Shown here one piece after another: positions 1 through 22,829 of a stretch of DNA of 23,172 nucleotides. The translations under genes and the position numbers were made by a program. Source of the DNA: a virus; IMG/VR virus record IMGVR_UViG_3300021960_000540, positions 1 to 23,172 of that record; one strand, given 5' to 3'. The notes under the pieces were generated by a model. It saw only the letters and a program-made list of their open reading frames with translations. It searched no databases and was not told the DNA's origin. Numbering within the stretch: the stretch's first letter is position 1; every line of letters begins with the position of its first letter.

Positions 1-3000
1 CCTCCAGTAAGGGTAATACCGTTTACTGAGCCTGTAGTTGCTACTGAAGTAACTGTACCTGTAGTTGTAGAATAACCATAAGCCAGTATTTTGTCTTCAA
101 TAGCCGCTGAAGTCATTAGTGACGTATCATTAGCTACGAAAGCTTCTGCACTAGTCTGATAAGCGGCATCCGCTAATTGAGATACGGTAATCCCGCTTAA
201 AGCGCCTCCAAGAGTAAGAGTACCCGAAGAGGTAACTGTACCTGTAAGGGTAATACCGTTTACTGAGCCTGTAGTTGCTACTGAAGTAACTGTACCTGTA
301 GTTGTAGAATAACCATAAGCCAGTATTTTGTCTTCAATAGCCGCTGAAGTCATTAGTGACGTATTATTAGCTTCGAAAGCTTCTGTATTAGTCTGATAAG
401 CGGCATCCGCTAATTGAGATACGGTAATCCCGCTTAAAGCGCCTCCAAGAGTAAGAGTACCTGAGCCAGTAATTGTACCTCCAGTAAGGGTAATACCGTT
501 TACTGAGCCTGTAGTTGCTACTGAAGTAACTGTACCTGTAGTTGTAGAATAACCATAAGCCAGTATTTTGTCTTCAATAGCCGCTGAAGTCATTAGTGAC
601 GTATCATTAGCTACGAAAGCTTCTGCACTAGTCTGATAAGCGGCATCCGCTAATTGAGATACGGTAATCCCGCTTAAAGCGCCTCCAAGAGTAATAGTTC
701 CTGAGCTAGTAATTGTACCTCCAGTAAGGGTAATACCGTTTACTGAGCCTGTAGTTGCTACTGAAGTAACTGTACCTGTAGTGCTGCTAAAATTAGCATC
801 ATTATTAAATACGCTTAATTTAATCTCGCTTGCGGGTTTCCTACTCTCTGTAGTACCGTTTTGTAGTATAAATTCTGTGGTGGCAGCCACATCTGCTACC
901 ATGTCGGCTAACTCAGAAAAATCTAAACTAAAAGAGCCTGTAGATAATGTTATTCCAGTGCCTCCAGAGAATAAACCTCTTATCTCAGAATCTGATAAAC
1001 CATTAATAGTAGCTATAACAGGATCGGTTCCTGAAATAGCTACACTCAAATTAGTTCCAAAGTTTAAATCATCGACCTCTGTCGCAGTACCTCCACTATC
1101 TTGAACCTGCATAGAAGCAGATGCATTGACAATAGAGTTTGCATCAATAGTTACTCCAGAAAGAATTAGGTCAGTTCCGTCAAACCACACATACTTTGAG
1201 TCATTACCAAAGATCATTTTCCCAGCGGTTAAGTCTAAGAATGCTCCCGCCTCTCCGGAGGTAGGAGCAGAATCAGCTTCTGGAATGTTTCCGCCCTTTA
1301 GGGTACCTGCCGTAATGTCTCCGATGTTTGCTGATACGGCTGCAAGACTATTAACAGATACATCATCTGCAAAAACTTTCTGGGCGTTTAATAAAGTAGC
1401 AACAATAGAGTTTGCACTAACACTATCCGCAGTGATAGAATTAGCTGCTATAGTGTTGGCAGTAACAGAATTAGCCGCTAGATTATTAGCGGTTATAGAA
1501 TTAGCTGCTAATAACTCTGTTGTTATCGAATTTGATACGATTTTACTAGCATTGACCGAATTTGCAGCGATTTCATTAGTCCTAACCGAATTTGCAGCAA
1601 TAATATCAGCAGTGACTCCGTTTGCTGCAATATCATTGGTGTTAATCTTATTAGCATTTAATAAAGTAGCAACAATAGAGTTTGCACTAACACTATCCGC
1701 AGTGATAGAATTAGCTGCTATAGTGTTGGCAGTAACAGAATTAGCGGATAACTTCTCTACAGTAATTGCATTTGCCGCAATTTTATTACTAGTAATCGCG
1801 TTGGCAGCAATAGTATCAGCAGTGACTGCCCCAACAGTTAACTCTAGAGTTGTTATAGAGTTAGATGCAATAGTATCCGCATTAACTGAGTTAGTCGCCA
1901 AAGAGTCAGAAGTAATAGAGTTAGCTGCAATTGAGTTTGTAGTGATTTGATTAGCAGCAATCAAATTAGTAGTAATAGAGTTAGCAGCAATCTTATCAGA
2001 GTTAATTTGATTAGCAGCAATTCTGTTGGTTGTAATAGAATTTGCGGCAAGAAGCTCGGTGGTAATAGTATTAGCTACAATGTTTTCAGCAAAAACAGCA
2101 TTTGCTATAAGCTCATTTGTAGTAATAGAGTTAGCAGCAATCTTATCGGCGTTAACAGAATTAACAGCAAGTTTTTCTGCGGTAATTAAAAAAGCGTCAA
2201 GTGTTTCTGTAGTAATAGACCCAGAAGAAATATGCCTAGAGGTGATTGCGTTGGAAGCAATAATGTTTGCTTCAACAGAATTGGATTGCAAAATATTAGA
2301 ATTAATAGCATTCGATACAAGAGAATTAGTAGTAACTGACTCTGCAGCAATAGTTTTTGATGTGACAGAATTAGCAGAAATAGTATCTGTAATAACAGAA
2401 TTAGCCTGTAAAATATCTGTAGTGACAGAATTAGCAGAAATAGTATCTGTAATAACAGAATTAGCCTGTAAAATGGCTGTAGTGACAGAATTAGCCGAAA
2501 TAGTATCTGTAATAACAGAATTAGCCTGTAAAATATCTGTAGTGACAGAATTAGCCGAAATAGTATCTGTAATAACAGAATTAGCCTGTAAAATGTCTGT
2601 AGTGACAGAATTAGCAGAAATAGTATCTGTAATAACAGAATTAGCCTGTAAAATGTCTGTAGTGACAGAATTAGCAGCAATAGTATCCGCAATAACAGAG
2701 TTAGACACAATACTATTTGTAATAATGGAGTTAGATGCAATAATATTCGTAACAACAGAATTAGATGCGATAGTATCCGTAACAACAGAATTAGCAGCTA
2801 ACTTGCCTGTAGTAATTGAACCAGCAGCTAAACTTCCAGTTCCAACGGAACCACTTATTAATAAAGAGCCATCTACTGCTTCTGTTTGTTCTACCCAGGA
2901 TGAAATTGGATCATAAATCCAAACACTCTGTGCTGTGGGAGCACTTTCAGAGCCCACAAAAAACCAAGCTTGGTCTTTGGCTATAGGATCCCCCGGTCTA

Positions 3001-6000
3001 TTAGTCCAAGAAGTATCCCAAGCTGTGTCAGCTTGAGAAGAAGTTGTAGGAAGAGAAGTAACTGGAACATGCCATCTTCCTGCGCCTCTAGAACCTACGG
3101 AAGAAACACTAAAATCTTGTTCTGGATAAAATAGTGATGTATTTCCAAAAGAATCAGTAACCTGTACAGTATATTTAATAGTTGCACTTAGGGCGGTAAT
3201 ACTACTAGGAACATCATATAGTATAAAATCAGAACCTTCCGTATCTACGGCACCTGCAGTAATATTTGTAGGTGTAACAGCGTTCACTTTAAAAGAAGGT
3301 TCTGCGGCTCCAGTGCTGTCATAAGGTATATCTGTAATACCTGATTTTACTCGTATAGCTGTACCCGTACCAGTATATACATAACTGCCTAGGGAGAGAG
3401 GATTCTCTGACAAAGATACAACAGGTCTGGAAAGATTTACGGATACGGCTTCTACTCCCGAAGCAGTTACTGCTGTTAGTACACTTGTATAAGGGGAAAA
3501 GAAAGTTTTTGGAATATTTTCGGTGCTTCGAGTAGTAGTGCTAGTAGTTCTATAACGAATCCAATAGTATAAAGTAGTCGGAGCAATACTAATAACTGGG
3601 TCTAAATAAGTGGTTGCTGAAGAGGTACCAATGAGTTCCGCAGTATTTACGTCATTAGTAGTATTTCTTCTTACTTCAATAGTGTAGTTGTTGGGATTAA
3701 ACTTCGGCGCATTTACCCAGGAAAGTTGAATACCAACTCTCTGGGTAATATGAGAAAAGCTTGTGGGAGTAACTACATCTGCTTGATTAGCTACACTAGC
3801 GGAAGTTTGTCCAGAAAATTCACTGACAGGACTAGGCTGCACTAAGTAAGCATCATCATTGTGTTCTTCTGCAGTAACTTGAACCAAACAATCATTGGTA
3901 AATGTTAAATTAGTAATTCTAAAATACTTGGTTACCCACCCGAATCTATCATAATTAATAGCGATAATATTACCAGCTACTAGCAGAATACCTCGCGGAG
4001 TAGTTTTAAAACTAATTTTTAACCCATAACGAGATTGTTCTAGATATTGGCTGGCATTGATTCTAGCATTATAGTAATTTGTTACATAGGGCGTTTTAAA
4101 ATCTCCCTTTTTAGACACATTTCTATCTTCTTTTAGGTAAGTAGAATTAAAGAAAGAAATATTTCTAGTTTCAAAAGAATTTTGAGGATCCGAGATACCT
4201 ACAGAAACTAAGTTAAAAGTTCCTTTTTGTCCTGCATCTTCTACGTTTATAGTACCAATGATGTCGTCTTCATATAAAATTTCAGCGGAGTCAAGAGTAC
4301 CTACTTTAGACTCTACAGCAATATCATACTTACCGTTAGAATAACGAAGCATGCCATTAAAGTGGTTTAACATGCTATTAATATTATCGAATACAGAAGC
4401 AGAAGTATCTAATACAACATTAGTTTGGTGGCGAGTTACTTCTCTCTGATTTTGATCGGCCCACCCAAGATATTTCCAGAATTTTACTTCATCAGAGTCG
4501 TATAAAGAATAGCCAGAAGCAAAGGTAGTTGTAGAACCTTGTAATTTTCTAATAACTGGATTACTGTATTCTCCTGGAGCATTTCCAGCACCTATGGTCA
4601 TAGTCGCAGTGCCACCCCCATTTACTTTATCTAAAGTAAGCGAGGTTATTTCAGTAAGAAGTATCAGAGCTGCTTTAGTTATTTTACCAGTAGAAGTGAC
4701 TCTATAAAGTTTACCGGAAGTCCAAACTAAATCACCGGCAGTGTATGTTTTCCAATCATGCCACTTATATCCCAACTTACCAATTACATCTGTCCAGACA
4801 GTCTCTAGTAGCCCGGACTCAGATTTACTAGATAGCTTCGTACCTTGCCATACCGTTTTGCCGTTGTAAGAATATTTATATATATCGCCTACTAGGGGGC
4901 TATAACTAGTTGATATTGTTGAAACATCAGAACGAGTATCACAAACTCGTGCAGCGGCTAAAAAGCTTGGTAATCCAATATCTTTCTCAAGACTCAGACC
5001 TTTACCAAACCTAACATTGGTCATGTAGTCTAAAGTCTGCATAACAGGATTAATAGAAACTCTTAAATCGGGCTTAGTATATAGTTTATAGCTATCTCCA
5101 GTGGTACCATTACCTGTGGGTAGATAACCTATATCAAAAGCTGAATCAACTGCAGCTATTCTATAGTCAGTGCCTGCTTCGGTAAATGCATAATATTTTA
5201 CTACTTTTCTTTTCTGTAGATAGGTAGAGCCATCAGCTACTGTACGAGTAACTTCTATCTCAAAACCATTATAAGCGTCTTCTACAGAGCTGGCTGTGGC
5301 AGGGTCAAGAGCTATAGCATTATTTATAGTAATATAGTTTAATACAGTATCAAATTCAGTAGCCGAGTCGGAAGTATCATAATCTTTTATAGTATGCGTT
5401 CCATCTCCATTATCTTCGGTATCACCTTTATCTTCAGACCCAGGGCCTCCCTGCCCATCTTCAGGTTGCGTATCTTGTGTTTGTTTTTGGGCAATAGTAG
5501 TTACTGTTCCTCGCCCTTTTATAGAATTATCTGGTTGCGCTTGCTCAGCAGCAGCGGATTCTATTATTACCCTAGGAACAGCACCACTCGATACAGTTAC
5601 ATCTACCCCTGTTGTAGTTGCTGTAGCTACAGATTGAATTGGAGCTTCAAGAGTCTCATCCACAATTCCGGTAATTTCTGTAGCGCCAGAGACTATAAAA
5701 TTTAATTGATTTGCAGGCGTCGTTACACTCTGAATATAAAAAGCGGAAGTAGTGGTAAAAGCAGGGTCATTTTTTAATCTAATCCTAGGCGAAGAATTTT
5801 CTGGGAGAGTAAATATATCCTGTATATAATTGGAAGAACCTATTTGAGTTCCTCCAAGTTCGTGTAAAGTTACTTCTTCACCTAAAATAAAATTATCGGA
5901 ATCTTGTCCTGCGGCAGGCACAGAAATATAGGACCAGTCATAGTTATAGCAGTCTATCAGTCTACCCCGAACTACAAAATCTAGTTCTGGTATAGAGGTC

Positions 6001-7742
6001 TCATCTTCGGCTATAGTATATTTTCCGACAACATAAGCAGTGTCTAATACTCTATGCTGTCCTCCCCAGTATGAAAAACGTTTATCAGAGTAGTAGTCCT
6101 GTTGTAATTTAAATCTTTGTGCACTAGCTAAGGATACTAAAAGAGAATCTGCTTTTTGATTAGAAGCTCCTGCATGGAAAGTATATCTGGCATCTATGGG
6201 GCTAGTATATGATGCAAACTCTCCCTCCTGTATTCCGTTTCCGTTTGTTACAGTTCCTGTAGCGCTTAGCGCTTCAACGTTGTCTAAGTTTACGGCATAA
6301 ACACCGTCGTCGTATTCTACAAGTTCCCCAAATTCTGTAGTATGAACTGTAACTACAGATCTGGACTCACCATCCTTGCCGACTTTCGCATTGATTTTAG
6401 TGCCGTCGTATACGCTAGTCGTAGTACCTAGTACGTCTCCTTGGTCCATTCTGCCGATACATGCGACATCTACATTTTCTGTCGCAGTCGGCCCTCTAGT
6501 AACGGAGTCTTGTCCATCCACACAAATACTTGAAAGATTATTCAAGTATATATCATATATCCCTGAAATTTCTCCTTCGCATATGGCATAAGCTACGTAT
6601 ACAATTCTAGAGTTATCTACCTCTGTATCTACGAAAAACGGTACACTGTCTATTTTCTGTACACCATAAACTACAGGCAAGTATTTTGCTTCTAAATTGA
6701 ACCTGAGATCGGCTTCTCTATCTACATTTACTTGGTATTCTACTTGCTTATATTTTTTACTACCATACCATTTTCTCTTCATTTTGAGTTTGGTTCTGGT
6801 TTCTTTAACTTGATAGATTGCTATAAGATTTATAGCTAACTCTGAGTGGGCAAACCCTAGATCTGTAGCGTATTCTTGTCTTTTAAGGGCGGAAGGAATA
6901 ACTTTGCCAGAAGCATCTAATCCTCTATGGAAAGAGTCTGCAGTGAGTCGTCCGCTAACTCTTACGAAGTCTCCCCAATGGCTAGAAACATTCCAGGAAA
7001 TTCTTGAATTACCTTCTGGATTTTCAGTAAGTTTTGCAGTGTTAATAATACCTTTAAATAGAAGATAAGGCGAGCCAATGATAAGACCATTAGTATTATC
7101 AATATGCGCTTTATAGATAAATACTTCTCTATTAATGTAGCCTGCATAGCTCGTAGCTGTTCTTTTATTAAGTAGCCCAATTACTTCTTCGGAAGCAAAT
7201 TCTAAAGTATAGAAGTTTGTTTTAGTAACAAAAGCTTCATCAACAGTAACAATAGCTCTCGTATTGTTTTGAGTAAAGCTATCTATTCGAGCAGTTTTTC
7301 CATCATTATTATCGCCAAGATCTATAAGCTTAACTTTATCGCCTTCTGCGAAACCGGCGAGCACTAAATCGAAATTTGACTGAATAAAATCAGCGCCGAT
7401 AGTAAAAGTATCTCCTAGAGAGGTGGATAATGCTGTGGCATCTAGTTGTAAACTAATAGAAGAGGCGCGGGCTTGAGTAGTTTCTGTAACGCTACCTACA
7501 GAAATTAACCTATTTGATAAATACCGTTGTGCGCCATTACCGCTTTGGTCATCGAAACTAATATCTCGTGAACCATCCGTAATGTATGCATACCCGAGTG
7601 CGTCGGTTCTCGGCGTTCCCGTGGTAGTTTTTATTGCTTTTTCGAACTTAACAATATGTGCATAGGAAAAATTATCCCTATAATCGGCATTATCAGTTAG
7701 TAAAGAGTTGGTAAGATCTGTGCTTAAACTTCTGATTGTCAC
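1..7742 (-). CDS. Giant tip attachment / central fibre protein, J-like (partial)
   Basis: One frame stays open from GTG 7742 (GGAGG seven bases upstream, overlapping the previous TGA) to the left edge: about 2580 codons with no stop. Residues 1-290 look like a beta-rich hub domain (GRLTADSFHRGL near 260), perhaps lambda L-like. J-family motifs follow: YLPVVYGVQKI near 352, with VAYAICEGEISGIYDIYLN after it, YMTNVRFGKGL near 905, and FDNINSMLNHFNGMLRYSNG near 1120-1145. Around 775-800 is an acidic Gly/Pro/Asp linker. A fibronectin III-like region spans about 1325-1395, and EAVDGSLLISGSVGTGSL lies near 1610. Then come about 48 decapeptide repeats (1634-2120), SANIGDITAGTLKGG, and 80-residue repeats from about 2320 on. 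It binds the host receptor and forms the tail tip. The C-terminus is outside the window. Confidence 0.92.
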   Translation of the reverse strand, partial: MTIRSLSTDLTNSLLTDNADYRDNFSYAHIVKFEKAIKTTTGTPRTDALGYAYITDGSRDISFDDQSGNGAQRYLSNRLISVGSVTETTQARASSISLQLDATALSTSLGDTFTIGADFIQSNFDLVLAGFAEGDKVKLIDLGDNNDGKTARIDSFTQNNTRAIVTVDEAFVTKTNFYTLEFASEEVIGLLNKRTATSYAGYINREVFIYKAHIDNTNGLIIGSPYLLFKGIINTAKLTENPEGNSRISWNVSSHWGDFVRVSGRLTADSFHRGLDASGKVIPSALKRQEYATDLGFAHSELAINLIAIYQVKETRTKLKMKRKWYGSKKYKQVEYQVNVDREADLRFNLEAKYLPVVYGVQKIDSVPFFVDTEVDNSRIVYVAYAICEGEISGIYDIYLNNLSSICVDGQDSVTRGPTATENVDVACIGRMDQGDVLGTTTSVYDGTKINAKVGKDGESRSVVTVHTTEFGELVEYDDGVYAVNLDNVEALSATGTVTNGNGIQEGEFASYTSPIDARYTFHAGASNQKADSLLVSLASAQRFKLQQDYYSDKRFSYWGGQHRVLDTAYVVGKYTIAEDETSIPELDFVVRGRLIDCYNYDWSYISVPAAGQDSDNFILGEEVTLHELGGTQIGSSNYIQDIFTLPENSSPRIRLKNDPAFTTTSAFYIQSVTTPANQLNFIVSGATEITGIVDETLEAPIQSVATATTTGVDVTVSSGAVPRVIIESAAAEQAQPDNSIKGRGTVTTIAQKQTQDTQPEDGQGGPGSEDKGDTEDNGDGTHTIKDYDTSDSATEFDTVLNYITINNAIALDPATASSVEDAYNGFEIEVTRTVADGSTYLQKRKVVKYYAFTEAGTDYRIAAVDSAFDIGYLPTGNGTTGDSYKLYTKPDLRVSINPVMQTLDYMTNVRFGKGLSLEKDIGLPSFLAAARVCDTRSDVSTISTSYSPLVGDIYKYSYNGKTVWQGTKLSSKSESGLLETVWTDVIGKLGYKWHDWKTYTAGDLVWTSGKLYRVTSTGKITKAALILLTEITSLTLDKVNGGGTATMTIGAGNAPGEYSNPVIRKLQGSTTTFASGYSLYDSDEVKFWKYLGWADQNQREVTRHQTNVVLDTSASVFDNINSMLNHFNGMLRYSNGKYDIAVESKVGTLDSAEILYEDDIIGTINVEDAGQKGTFNLVSVGISDPQNSFETRNISFFNSTYLKEDRNVSKKGDFKTPYVTNYYNARINASQYLEQSRYGLKISFKTTPRGILLVAGNIIAINYDRFGWVTKYFRITNLTFTNDCLVQVTAEEHNDDAYLVQPSPVSEFSGQTSASVANQADVVTPTSFSHITQRVGIQLSWVNAPKFNPNNYTIEVRRNTTNDVNTAELIGTSSATTYLDPVISIAPTTLYYWIRYRTTSTTTRSTENIPKTFFSPYTSVLTAVTASGVEAVSVNLSRPVVSLSENPLSLGSYVYTGTGTAIRVKSGITDIPYDSTGAAEPSFKVNAVTPTNITAGAVDTEGSDFILYDVPSSITALSATIKYTVQVTDSFGNTSLFYPEQDFSVSSVGSRGAGRWHVPVTSLPTTSSQADTAWDTSWTNRPGDPIAKDQAWFFVGSESAPTAQSVWIYDPISSWVEQTEAVDGSLLISGSVGTGSLAAGSITTGKLAANSVVTDTIASNSVVTNIIASNSIITNSIVSNSVIADTIAANSVTTDILQANSVITDTISANSVTTDILQANSVITDTISANSVTTDILQANSVITDTISANSVTTAILQANSVITDTISANSVTTDILQANSVITDTISANSVTSKTIAAESVTTNSLVSNAINSNILQSNSVEANIIASNAITSRHISSGSITTETLDAFLITAEKLAVNSVNADKIAANSITTNELIANAVFAENIVANTITTELLAANSITTNRIAANQINSDKIAANSITTNLIAANQITTNSIAANSITSDSLATNSVNADTIASNSITTLELTVGAVTADTIAANAITSNKIAANAITVEKLSANSVTANTIAANSITADSVSANSIVATLLNANKINTNDIAANGVTADIIAANSVRTNEIAANSVNASKIVSNSITTELLAANSITANNLAANSVTANTIAANSITADSVSANSIVATLLNAQKVFADDVSVNSLAAVSANIGDITAGTLKGGNIPEADSAPTSGEAGAFLDLTAGKMIFGNDSKYVWFDGTDLILSGVTIDANSIVNASASMQVQDSGGTATEVDDLNFGTNLSVAISGTDPVIATINGLSDSEIRGLFSGGTGITLSTGSFSLDFSELADMVADVAATTEFILQNGTTESRKPASEIKLSVFNNDANFSSTTGTVTSVATTGSVNGITLTGGTITSSGTITLGGALSGITVSQLADAAYQTSAEAFVANDTSLMTSAAIEDKILAYGYSTTTGTVTSVATTGSVNGITLTGGTITGSGTLTLGGALSGITVSQLADAAYQTNTEAFEANNTSLMTSAAIEDKILAYGYSTTTGTVTSVATTGSVNGITLTGTVTSSGTLTLGGALSGITVSQLADAAYQTSAEAFVANDTSLMTSAAIEDKILAYGYSTTTGTVTSVATTGSVNGITLTG
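7..780 (-). repeat. 240-bp tandem repeats in fibre gene, 3.2 copies or more
   Basis: Copies span 7-243 (237 bp, one codon shorter), 244-483 and 484-723, with a partial copy 724-780. The array continues off the left edge. Each encodes an 80-residue unit containing GSVNGITLTGG, TLGGALSGITVSQLADAAYQ and AAIEDKILAYGY. Bases 1-217 and 478-694 are identical, while the middle copy differs at four bases in that stretch (seven over the whole copy). It is a repeated beta-rich fibre shaft or receptor-region unit in the protein. Confidence 0.95.
1387..1745 (-). repeat. 89-bp perfect direct duplication, offset 270 bp
   Basis: Bases 1387-1475 and 1657-1745 are identical over 89 bp, 270 bp apart, while the intervening repeats are diverged. 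A block of nine decapeptides (90 codons) was therefore duplicated in frame in the shaft array, probably by slippage or recombination. Confidence 0.9.
2371..2670 (-). repeat. Five 60-bp tandem repeats inside the decapeptide array
   Basis: Five consecutive 60-bp units, nearly identical, each encoding two decapeptides (ANSVTTDILQ and ANSVITDTIS). They differ at only a few bases (cag/ccg and ata/atg/gct changes), so they are younger than the surrounding diverged 30-bp repeats and mark recent amplification. Confidence 0.93.
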
Positions 7743-13314: not shown

Positions 13315-13717
13315 GTGATTTGCTCTTCATCTTGTCGTATTGGCGTTTTAGTCTCTCTTGAGAAACTTTTATCGCTTCCGCGTCAAGCCTAGATAAAACT
13401 TCTATTAAAAGTTCTTTATCTTCAATATTATATAGATCTATTAAAATGGGTAGATTAGTATAATCTTTTCCTATGTAGCCTATTTCTGGATATACACGGT
13501 CTCCTAAAAGATTAAATACTTCTATTCCCTCTATAACACTAAGGGGCAAGTCCTCTACTCCTGGAGGACACTTGCTAGGATCTGGTTTTCTTCCTAATTG
13601 TTCTTCCATTTCCAGATACCTATCTTTTGTCATTCCGACAGTATTATTTTTCTGCCAAGTTTCGAACCTCTCCCAAAGCCTCTCTTTTTCCGTTTCCACG
13701 AAAGTTGGCAAGGTCAA
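13307..13717 (-). CDS. Tail assembly chaperone extension (T-like), frameshift product
   Basis: This frame is open after a TAG near 13720 and encodes up to 136 residues. The first possible start is a TTG without a ribosome site. The protein sequence FETWQKNNTVGMTKDRYLEM, then EEQLGRKPDP and PPGVEDLPLSVIEG, resembles the downstream T domain of lambda-type G-T chaperones, so it is probably made only as the tail of the upstream protein. If the shift happens at GGA AAA AGA (13691-13683) the fusion has about 261 residues. The C-terminus overlaps the GTG start of the tape measure gene by eight bases. It belongs to the same operon from P2. Confidence 0.72.
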   Translation of the reverse strand: MTLPTFVETEKERLWERFETWQKNNTVGMTKDRYLEMEEQLGRKPDPSKCPPGVEDLPLSVIEGIEVFNLLGDRVYPEIGYIGKDYTNLPILIDLYNIEDKELLIEVLSRLDAEAIKVSQERLKRQYDKMKSKSRG

Positions 13718-14100: not shown

Positions 14101-15024
14101 CTAATAAGTAAAATAAGTGTTTAAGTTTGCTGGGTTGCTCATTAGACGAAAATCATAGTTTTGAGAAAAAACTTCACCAAAGACTGGTCTATTCGTAAAA
14201 GAACAAGCATTTGGCATATTTATATCTAACTGCAAATCAGCTGCTGAAAATCCAGCACGAATACGTACAGAAGCATTTTCACTCCAAGTTAGTAAGTTAT
14301 TAATAGACTCAGTATTAGTATTATCAATATATTGAGTAATACTTCCACCCAAAGTTCTTCCTTCTAAAGTGAAGGAGTTTGGGTAGATTGTATTGGAGGC
14401 ACCTGTTACAGCTTGAGTATCTTGAATAGTTCTATTCTCCGTCCAAGATATATCGTTTTGTAGCTCTAGGGATGCTCCCTGAATATTATCTAAATCACTT
14501 CCTTGAACGGATACAATGAACTCTTTTGATACTGCGAAACTTGGTGTAGTATCATAACCTACAATGGAAGGATTAAAGGTTCCTTCTGTTCTTGTAAGTT
14601 TAGTTCCTTGTCCGGAAAGAGGCACTGTCATTATTCCAGCTCTTGGAATATTGAAAGTTCCACTAGTAAAAACTGCATTTTCTATCTTATAGTAAACGTC
14701 AGGACTTTTGTTCTGGTATACAAAATAAAGATTAAAAGTGTTTAAACTATTTCCGTTGTAATCTAATAATAAATCCAGAGGCTTATGCTGATATAGCGAG
14801 GCTTCATCTAATACATAGAGTGTAAAAGAAAAGTCTGCTGGATTTGCTCTATTGATGACGGAACCTTCGAACAAATTATTCGGGCTATGCAAAGTTCTTT
14901 TTGCAACGCCTTCTTGTTGAAAGGTTTGGGAGAAAGTGACATCTTTCATTGTATGAAGAAGGTAAAAAGTATTAGTTGGATATTCCAGCCATACTCGGCC
15001 TTCTCTTATAAACTCAAAACTCAC
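14101..15024 (-). CDS. Second tail tube-like protein
   Basis: A 307-residue beta-rich protein. Its N-terminus (RVWLEYPTNTFYLLHTMKDV, then FSQTFQQEGV, and later ADFSFTLYV) can be aligned by eye with the start of the neighbouring 377-residue tail tube protein (TVYVELVDG, LSVLDGFSFTQSI, VEWSMSTYA). The C-terminal halves also correspond (RTLGGSITQYIDNTNTE against RSISGSMTCYLDNDQA). I infer a paralogue, perhaps a tube initiator, a minor tube protein near the tip or neck, or a second major subunit. Start is GTG 15024 with AGGAG seven bases upstream. It has its own promoter and a hairpin leader. The gap to the next gene is seven bases. Confidence 0.75.
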   Translation of the reverse strand: MSFEFIREGRVWLEYPTNTFYLLHTMKDVTFSQTFQQEGVAKRTLHSPNNLFEGSVINRANPADFSFTLYVLDEASLYQHKPLDLLLDYNGNSLNTFNLYFVYQNKSPDVYYKIENAVFTSGTFNIPRAGIMTVPLSGQGTKLTRTEGTFNPSIVGYDTTPSFAVSKEFIVSVQGSDLDNIQGASLELQNDISWTENRTIQDTQAVTGASNTIYPNSFTLEGRTLGGSITQYIDNTNTESINNLLTWSENASVRIRAGFSAADLQLDINMPNACSFTNRPVFGEVFSQNYDFRLMSNPANLNTYFTY

Positions 15025-15054
15025 TTAGGATCTCCTTGACAATCTCCTTATAGA

Positions 15055-15083
15055 GAAAAACGGGGGGGATTATTTTCCCCCCC
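15055..15083 (-). terminator. G7/C7 hairpin with T-tract, just downstream of P2
   Basis: On the minus strand seven G (15083-15077), an eight-base AT-rich loop and seven C (15068-15062) form a perfect stem, followed by GTTTTT (15061-15056). It looks like an intrinsic terminator for transcripts arriving from the first tail tube gene. Because P2 starts about five bases upstream, the same hairpin forms the 5' end of P2 transcripts. Two AGGAG boxes (15047-15043 and 15035-15031) follow, the second serving the GTG at 15024. Confidence 0.8.
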
Positions 15084-15093
15084 AATTCTCATA

Positions 15094-15122
15094 ATTATAT
15101 CTAACAAATAGTATTTTGTCAA
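15094..15122 (-). promoter_or_regulatory. Perfect consensus sigma-70 promoter P2
   Basis: On the minus strand TTGACA (15122-15117), a 17-base spacer and TATAAT (15099-15094) form a full sigma-70 consensus. The box AAAAAATAATTCTTGAC (15134-15118) is identical to that at promoter P1. Transcription should start near 15088-15087 and serve the second tail tube gene, chaperones, tape measure and tail tip. The start is only about five bases before a terminator-like hairpin. Confidence 0.85.
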
Positions 15123-15141
15123 GAATTATTTTTTACTATGC

Positions 15142-16275
15142 TTATGCTTTATAGATGATAGTAGCTTCGTCGGTATTATCAACGTTACCAGAAGCAACTT
15201 GACCGTGGAAGTTAATTTCAAGAGTAAGCAAATCTTCTACGTTAATAGTAGGAACTTCTAAATGCGCTGTTGGTAAATCAAACGCAATTCTAGGAGTATT
15301 TGGTGTTTCACCACCAATATTAATACTCATATCAAATACGTTTCTAACAGTAGTAGTATCCGAGACTAAATCTGCGAATAGTTCTCCTGATTTACTATTG
15401 GCTTGATCATTATCAAGGTAACAAGTCATAGAACCTGAAATTGAGCGAGCACCAGTAATATTTGCTAAAGGAGCGTTCACAATACCTAATTCTTCTGGGG
15501 TTAGGTAAGATACATTATTTTCAATAGAAAAAGACCCACCGGTAAGAACGAGATTATATACATCGTCTGGACTTACGTCAGTACGTGACAAACTCATTGT
15601 AGAGATACGGTTACGAATAAAGTTAGTAGTTTCTGTAATACCAATAGCTTGAGCACCGACTAAATCTGCGGGTACAGAAGTACCAGAGTCCGTCAAAGTT
15701 TTTGCAAAACCACTCCACTGAATAGTAGCGATACCATCAATATCAAAGTCAACACTGCAAGAGTTTACTACAGAACTATCAAGTTTGTAAACTTGAATAT
15801 TAGTGCCGTCCTCAAAACTAAAATAAATATTCCAACGATCCCCAAAAGTAGACACGTTAGAAGCGCTAAAATCAAAAGTATTACTATTTGCTGCGGGAGT
15901 ATTAACGTTTGCGTTAGCAGCATCTTCAATACCTATTACTGAGTTATAGAAAACACCCGTAACTGGATTATAAGAATCCGAACCCATTAACATACCCCAT
16001 AAAGGCTCTTCAGGCATATGAACTACGCCACTACTTACGATAGGTCGAGCATAAGTACTCATGGACCATTCCACAGGTGCTAAACTATCGTTAAAAAGCA
16101 ATCTTGCTCTACGAGAAGTGGTTCCTGCTTCACTGATCGTAATTTCAGATGAGTTAATTGATTGAGTAAAAGAAAATCCATCTAATACAGATAATTTCCA
16201 AGCTTCTACGTGTGTGCCGGATCCGTCTACTAATTCTACGTATACCGTTGCATTTCTTGTAAATTGTAATGCCAT
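15142..16275 (-). CDS. Major tail tube protein
   Basis: A 377-residue, beta-rich protein placed between the tail terminator and tail assembly genes, where siphoviruses encode the tube subunit. It starts MALQFTRNATVYVELVDG, then has KLSVLDGFSFTQSINSSEIT and SRRARLLFNDSLAPVEWSMS. Near the C-terminus is RSISGSMTCYLDNDQANSK, with a strand run ending in LLTLEINFHGQ. Repeated beta strands, hardly any Cys and a conserved paralogue next door (14101-15024) support a structural tube role. The strong ribosome site AGGAG is seven bases before ATG and is preceded by a hairpin. The length exceeds the usual 150-250 residues, leaving room for an Ig-like or decoration insertion, but I cannot place one by eye. 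Confidence 0.8.
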   Translation of the reverse strand: MALQFTRNATVYVELVDGSGTHVEAWKLSVLDGFSFTQSINSSEITISEAGTTSRRARLLFNDSLAPVEWSMSTYARPIVSSGVVHMPEEPLWGMLMGSDSYNPVTGVFYNSVIGIEDAANANVNTPAANSNTFDFSASNVSTFGDRWNIYFSFEDGTNIQVYKLDSSVVNSCSVDFDIDGIATIQWSGFAKTLTDSGTSVPADLVGAQAIGITETTNFIRNRISTMSLSRTDVSPDDVYNLVLTGGSFSIENNVSYLTPEELGIVNAPLANITGARSISGSMTCYLDNDQANSKSGELFADLVSDTTTVRNVFDMSINIGGETPNTPRIAFDLPTAHLEVPTINVEDLLTLEINFHGQVASGNVDNTDEATIIYKA

Positions 16276-18809: not shown

Positions 18810-18840
18810 AAAAAGGCTTGGGAAGCCCGAAGGCTTCCCA
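18810..18840 (-). terminator. Hairpin terminator after capsid gene
   Basis: On the minus strand, TGGGAAGCC (18840-18832), loop TTCG, and GGCTTCCCA (18827-18819) form a perfect nine-base-pair stem with an extra-stable UUCG loop. A run of five T (18814-18810) follows after AAGCC. It lies 11 bases past the capsid stop. The four bases between stem and T-run make it less than ideal, so partial termination or protection of the capsid mRNA 3' end is likely. The next gene's ribosome site (AGGAAAG) begins directly after it. Confidence 0.75.
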
Positions 18841-22780: not shown

Positions 22781-22809
22781 ATTATAGCTATAGGTCAGTT
22801 GAAAGTCAA
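22781..22809 (-). promoter_or_regulatory. Sigma-70 promoter P1 before the head operon
   Basis: Read on the minus strand, TTGACT (22809-22804) and TATAAT (22786-22781) are separated by exactly 17 bases, a near-perfect sigma-70 promoter. An A-rich block precedes the -35. The box AAAAAATAATTCTTGAC (22821-22805), including part of the -35, is repeated identically at the second promoter near 15120. Transcription would start near 22774, only about six bases before the HNH ATG, and would read through HNH, portal and capsid genes. Position and sequence are seen directly. Activity is inferred. Confidence 0.8.
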
Positions 22810-22829
22810 GAATTATTTTTTTCTCGGCT

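What the first reader, a model, noticed from the sequence alone, without database searches (positions are those of the whole stretch)
15055..15122. Consensus promoter firing directly into a terminator-like hairpin
P2 has perfect -35 and -10 boxes at 17-base spacing, yet about five bases after its predicted start lies a seven-GC-pair hairpin with a T-tract. Transcripts from upstream would be stopped here, while P2 transcripts would carry the hairpin as a 5' cap. This could insulate two transcription units, stabilise the late tail mRNA, or act as an early attenuator. The G7 and C7 runs are also prone to length change, which would tune it.
Basis: partly seen in the sequence, partly recalled or inferred. 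Interest (0 to 1): 0.6.

Follow-up and report, generated by a model that had tools for sequence, protein, structure and literature searches.

The report
Promoter nested inside a terminator hairpin
Between its main tail gene and the next tail gene, a family of uncultivated T5-like phages places a strong transcription start signal at the foot of the hairpin that probably ends the previous message; the purpose looks ordinary, but the overlapping layout is unusual and is kept by evolution.

Summary
On the minus strand, TTGACA-N17-TATAAT (15122-15094) is followed by a hairpin with seven G-C pairs (15084-15061) and GTTTTTCTC. It lies in the 117-nt gap between the major tail protein gene and the base-plate tail-tube gene of a T5-like phage fragment. 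Relatives in IMG/VR give 48 distinct versions of this boundary, and every one has a GC-rich hairpin. In 32 it follows the promoter directly; in 12 a terminator-like hairpin precedes the promoter and the strong leader hairpin is gone; in 4 there is no promoter. None has both. The hairpin also has an outer stem whose left arm lies between the -10 box and the predicted start. That arm pairs with its own partner better than with partners from other phages, and is complete only in RNA arriving from upstream. So the hairpin looks selected mainly as the 3'-end terminator of the major-tail message, with P2 restarting transcription inside it. A '5' cap' on P2 RNA follows from geometry but is not conserved where the terminator sits upstream. 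Whether P2 transcripts are attenuated is unknown. The cultured T5-like phages inspected lack the cassette. New variant of a known kind; nothing was measured experimentally.

The parts
15123..15134 (-). AAAAAATAATTC, UP-element-like block directly upstream of the -35 box, shared with P1
   Evidence: AAAAATA nearly invariant in 44 promoter-bearing relatives
15117..15122 (-). P2 -35 box TTGACA
   Evidence: conserved
15094..15099 (-). P2 -10 box TATAAT, 17-nt spacer
   Evidence: conserved
15087..15088 (-). Predicted P2 start (6-7 nt after the -10 box); not mapped
   Evidence: Inference from the usual sigma70 spacing
15086..15090 (-). Left arm of the outer stem (GAGAA), overlapping the discriminator and predicted start
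15061..15084 (-). Inner hairpin: G7, loop AAAATAAT, C7, plus a flanking T-G pair
15056..15060 (-). T5 tract, predicted release region for upstream transcripts
   Evidence: T-score 2.56
15053..15057 (-). Right arm of the outer stem (TTCTC; RNAfold also offers TTTTC 15059-15055)
15142..16275 (-). Major tail protein gene, upstream of the cassette
   Evidence: phrog_3575, E 2.4e-51; T5 pb6-like by synteny
14101..15024 (-). Base-plate tail tube protein gene, downstream of the cassette
   Evidence: phrog_3889, E 2.1e-16

Best explanation
The hairpin is a (probably incomplete) intrinsic terminator that forms the 3' end of the major tail protein transcript, and promoter P2 is nested at its foot to restart transcription for the downstream tail-tip genes. 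Polymerases from upstream transcribe the promoter's discriminator and so make the full two-stage hairpin (outer stem plus GC core) and release RNA at about 15056. P2 starts inside the left arm, so its RNA carries only the GC core, about four nt from its 5' end, and some P2 RNA may also stop at about +33. The effect is to uncouple the abundant tail-tube message from the downstream genes. Shown by sequence comparison: conservation, one strong hairpin per boundary, covariation that reaches upstream of the predicted start. Inferred: termination itself, P2 activity, the start position and the purpose.
For: All 48 distinct boundaries have one GC-rich hairpin; 32 after the promoter, 12 before it, 4 without promoter, none both. 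The switch of place happened repeatedly: at least 4 changes on supported branches, 6 on the best tree. Outer-stem left arm upstream of +1 pairs with its own right arm (-1.40 kcal/mol) better than with swapped ones (-0.57; 0 of 5000), clade-level p 0.007, within-clade p 0.0012. Read-through RNA folds a median 3.5 kcal/mol better than P2 RNA. The hairpin stays when the downstream gene differs. Most members have a T-tract.
Against: T-tracts in this class are weaker than in the upstream-terminator class (3.07 against 4.64) and nearly absent in about five of 26 members. A terminator directly behind a promoter should also cut P2 transcripts. Independent contrasts are few (4; sign test cannot reach 0.05). 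No RNA data.
Confidence: 0.62

Rival explanations
1. 5'-end stabiliser: the hairpin exists to protect P2 mRNA, keeping the 5' end structured so that pyrophosphohydrolase and RNase E act slowly, as with the ompA and papA leaders.
For: The GC core starts only 3-7 nt from the predicted 5' end in class A; 5' stem-loops are known to lengthen mRNA life (references listed in PMC3997798). A few members with an upstream terminator keep a weak leader hairpin (L161, L162, L191, L228, L231).
Against: Members with an upstream terminator mostly lack a stable leader hairpin (mean -3.8 kcal/mol, z about 0). Selection on pairing lies upstream of the predicted start, outside P2 RNA. Three or more unpaired 5' nt are enough for the Bacillus pyrophosphohydrolase (PMC3997798). 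P1 lacks a hairpin.
Confidence: 0.13
2. Attenuator: P2 fires into the hairpin by default, making a short RNA of about 33 nt, and a phage factor loaded at the promoter lets polymerase pass, as in Q or AlpA control.
For: Geometry; AlpA works on promoters followed by intrinsic terminators and binds between -35 and -10 (PMC7969949). The spacer shows some conserved letters, e.g. GGTC in class D.
Against: Consensus promoter with UP-like block; spacer not conserved enough in class A to define a site; lineages with an upstream terminator dispense with the leader hairpin; the contig is a fragment and no antiterminator gene was sought beyond it.
Confidence: 0.1
3. RNA-processing or 3'-protection element: the two-stage stem is cut by RNase III or blocks 3' exonucleases, and does not release polymerase.
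For: The two-stage stem is kept even where the T-tract is lost (L009, L021). Members with weaker T-tracts tend to have better own-partner outer pairing (Spearman 0.42, p 0.03). Promoterless members also have poor T-tracts.
Against: Most members carry a T-tract right after the stem; lineages with the hairpin in front of the promoter use textbook TTCGG terminators with T5-T8. The duplex is short for RNase III (general knowledge).
Confidence: 0.12

Closest known systems
Terminator followed by a promoter between phage transcription units (staphylococcal Kayvirus t97/p98, PMC7698491; class B relatives here)
   Same: A hairpin ends one unit and a promoter at once starts the next
   Different: Here the promoter comes first and the hairpin's outer arm overlaps its discriminator and start
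Terminator directly behind a major structural gene (capsid gene of T7 and LUZ100, PMC10134795; the putative terminator after the T5 major head gene)
   Same: Limits read-through from an abundant structural message
   Different: Those have no promoter nested in the hairpin; here the gene is the major tail protein
AlpA or lambda Q systems: promoter with an intrinsic terminator downstream (PMC7969949)
   Same: A promoter fires toward a terminator
   Different: No antiterminator or binding element was identified here, and the hairpin appears built for RNA from upstream
5'-terminal stem-loops that stabilise mRNA (ompA, papA)
   Same: A hairpin within a few nt of the mRNA 5' end
   Different: The hairpin carries a T-tract and pairing upstream of the start, and is not kept when a terminator sits upstream
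Recycling of polymerase after intrinsic termination (PMC6978380, PMC6978322)
   Same: Terminated polymerase can stay on DNA and restart nearby (37-55% in vitro in PMC6978380)
   Different: Here the promoter lies a few tens of bp behind the release point; recycling was not tested

Membership tests
Sigma70-type promoter | -35 and -10 hexamers at 16-18 nt, beyond chance | tested here: met
   12/12, spacer 17; 0.02 per shuffled window; conserved in 44 relatives
Sigma70-type promoter | RNA start at the predicted place | not testable with these tools
   No transcript data
Intrinsic terminator | Stable GC-rich hairpin kept by compensatory change | tested here: met
   Own arms 100% paired, swapped 76%
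Intrinsic terminator | T-tract directly after the stem | tested here: inconclusive
   T5 after one G in the window (score 2.56); good in most relatives, poor in about five of 26
Intrinsic terminator | RNA release at the T-tract | not testable with these tools
   Needs in vitro transcription or 3'-end mapping
5'-stabilising leader hairpin | Hairpin at the 5' end kept with the promoter | tested here: not met
   Promoter kept but strong leader hairpin absent in 12 of 44 promoter-bearing boundaries
Q/AlpA-type antitermination control | Defined antiterminator-binding site between -35 and -10 | tested here: inconclusive
   Spacer only partly conserved
Q/AlpA-type antitermination control | Antiterminator protein acting on the promoter | not tested
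   Contig is a fragment; no candidate was sought
Known Rfam RNA | Score above a family's gathering threshold | tested here: not met
   Best 20.2 bits against 58.6
T5-like (Demerecviridae) structural module | Homologous head and tail genes in the T5 order | tested here: met
   but the gap with promoter and hairpin is absent in the T5, Klebsiella and Vibrio relatives inspected

The most novel reading that the evidence does not exclude
An origin-sensing terminator: because P2 starts inside the hairpin's left arm, only RNA from upstream can make the full two-stage hairpin. One DNA element would then stop polymerases coming from the major tail gene while letting P2 polymerases pass, and might hand terminated polymerases back to P2 for immediate restart.
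Probability: 0.2. Interest if true: 0.65.

Novelty: new variant of a known kind. Interest (0 to 1): 0.42.

Why it matters
If right, it shows how phages compress a terminator and a restart promoter into about 70 bp by overlapping them. It also offers a natural, repeatedly rearranged set of promoter-first and terminator-first versions for testing how a terminator treats polymerases that started upstream of it against those that start within it, and whether terminated polymerase is recycled to a nested promoter.

Tried and rejected
Similar DNA in cultured phages: none. Copies in bacterial or archaeal genome contigs: no relative found. Rfam: no real match. Idea that the hairpin belongs to this promoter type in general: rejected, since most of 136 matches elsewhere in IMG/VR lack it (12 passed a loose hairpin rule, two of them this same boundary) and P1 in the window lacks it. 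Idea that it belongs to the downstream gene: rejected, since it persists where the next gene differs (L011, L012, L171-L189). Opposite-strand terminator: the plus-strand hairpin is followed by AATTCTC, not a T-run. G-quadruplex: only one G-run per strand. Conserved small RNA with a target: stem letters change while pairing stays, so unlikely (inference). Papers searched gave no described equivalent of this nested layout, but the library is partial. Searches crashed and were rerun in corrected form as 35 and 48; one search crashed and was rerun.

Full report
What is there. The cassette lies on the minus strand of a 23-kb virus contig that is a T5-like structural module: portal, major capsid with fused protease, connectors, tail terminator, major tail protein, base-plate tail tube, tail chaperones, tape measure, distal tail. 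In the 117-nt gap after the major tail protein gene stands TTGACA-N17-TATAAT (15122-15094), predicted start 15088-15087, then TTGGGGGGGAAAATAATCCCCCCCGTTTTTCTC and, 63 nt from the start, the GTG of the next gene with AAGGAG 7 nt before it. Chance is excluded by shuffles and, more firmly, by conservation.

Relatives. Two protein scans and two profile scans of IMG/VR gave 129 copies of this boundary, reduced to 49 that are less than 93% alike. One (L255) is too distant and is left out. The promoter block AAAAATA-N2-TCTTGAC...TATAMT is nearly invariant in all promoter-bearing members, although the major tail proteins fall to about 40% identity. Four layouts occur: A, promoter then hairpin starting 9-13 nt after the -10 box (26, the window among them); D, promoter then hairpin 14-20 nt after it (6); B, a terminator-like hairpin, mostly with a TTCGG loop and T5-T8, 4-21 nt after the stop codon, then the promoter with no GC-strong leader hairpin (12); C, hairpin without promoter (4). 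No member has strong hairpins on both sides. On the major-tail-protein tree the B state needs six changes, at least four on well-supported branches, and each independent contrast goes the same way; with four contrasts the sign test alone cannot be significant. My reading is that the boundary needs one hairpin and its place relative to the promoter is free. That fits termination of the major tail transcript and does not fit a purpose tied only to P2 RNA.

Covariation. Inner stem arms pair perfectly with their own partners and only 76% when swapped between phages; G-C to A-U and C-G changes occur at pairs 5-8. (Arms were chosen as the best local stem, so the 100% is partly by construction.) Around the inner stem is an outer stem, for example UUGUGAAA/UUUCACAA in L021 and GAGAA/UUCUC here. 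Own left and right flanks pair at -3.53 kcal/mol against -2.31 when swapped (0 of 5000), and the signal comes from the first six nt after the -10 box (-1.40 against -0.57, 0 of 5000), not from nt 7 onward. With clades as units the six-nt signal holds (p 0.007; whole flank p 0.06), and it holds within clades too (p 0.0012). These six nt lie upstream of the predicted start, so only RNA entering from the major tail gene contains them. Folding read-through against P2 RNA gives -23.7 against -18.6 kcal/mol here and a median gain of 3.5 across class A. Start positions are predicted from the -10 box, not mapped; a start three or four nt earlier would weaken this argument.

How good a terminator. The hairpin core is strong, but class A T-tracts are weaker than those of class B (mean score 3.07 against 4.64), and about five members have almost none. 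Members with weaker T-tracts tend to have better own-partner outer pairing (Spearman 0.42, p 0.03), an exploratory result. I therefore expect partial termination in some members. The hairpin starts a median 57 nt after the stop codon in A and D, 17 in B and 9.5 in C. In E. coli a terminator reaches full strength beyond about 30 nt from the stop codon, because a closer ribosome blocks folding (PMC4824070). Putting the promoter in that spacer costs no extra DNA (inference).

P2 transcripts. Their RNA would begin 3-7 nt before the GC core. Whether polymerase that has just left P2 stops at about +33 cannot be known from sequence. Options are partial early termination, escape because the outer arm is missing, or a loaded antiterminator as for AlpA (PMC7969949). 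Polymerases that release RNA at an intrinsic terminator often stay on the DNA and restart nearby (PMC6978380; PMC6978322), which would suit a nested promoter; this is only suggested.

Controls. The same promoter motif was found 136 times in a capped scan of IMG/VR contigs, mostly without a hairpin near the start. P1 in the window has none. The major capsid gene in the window ends in a TTCGG hairpin without a promoter, and T5 has an annotated putative terminator there. T5, a Klebsiella Sugarlandvirus and three Vibrio phages have gaps of 0-15 nt at the equivalent tail boundary, so the cassette belongs to this uncultivated branch.

Verdict. Its insulator reading is the best supported, its 5'-cap reading is secondary, and its attenuator reading is open. 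The layout (promoter in the foot of the terminator) is a new variant of a known arrangement.

Limits. Metagenome contigs only, host and timing unknown, no RNA data, a sampled set (best 80 of 453 relatives), and hairpin classes assigned by a simple rule (at least four G-C pairs).

Noticed in passing
22781-22820, minus strand: P1, an 11/12 promoter ahead of the HNH-like gene that opens the structural operon, shares AAAAAATAATTCTTGAC with P2. The same promoter block occurs in many unrelated-looking IMG/VR contigs, so it may be a widespread phage promoter type.
   Followed up: partly
15100-15116, minus strand, and the same spacer in L203-L232: The -35/-10 spacer is partly conserved at this boundary (e.g. 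GGTC...TTTGGAC in class D), which could be a regulator site or shared ancestry.
   Followed up: no
18819-18840, minus strand: TTCGG-loop hairpin right behind the major capsid gene, at the place where T5 has an annotated putative terminator; no promoter there.
   Followed up: partly
13644-13717, minus strand: The two tail assembly chaperone frames overlap, as expected for a programmed frameshift, but a simple X XXY YYZ scan found no slippery site.
   Followed up: partly
3-7742, minus strand: A single open frame of at least 2580 aa, open at the contig end, with many copies of an ANSVTTDIL/ANSVITDTI-like repeat, probably a tail-tip or fibre protein.
   Followed up: no
L004 and L005, boundary after the major tail gene: Nearly identical major tail proteins but quite different hairpin and right flank, each still self-complementary, suggesting rapid turnover or exchange of the cassette.
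   Followed up: no
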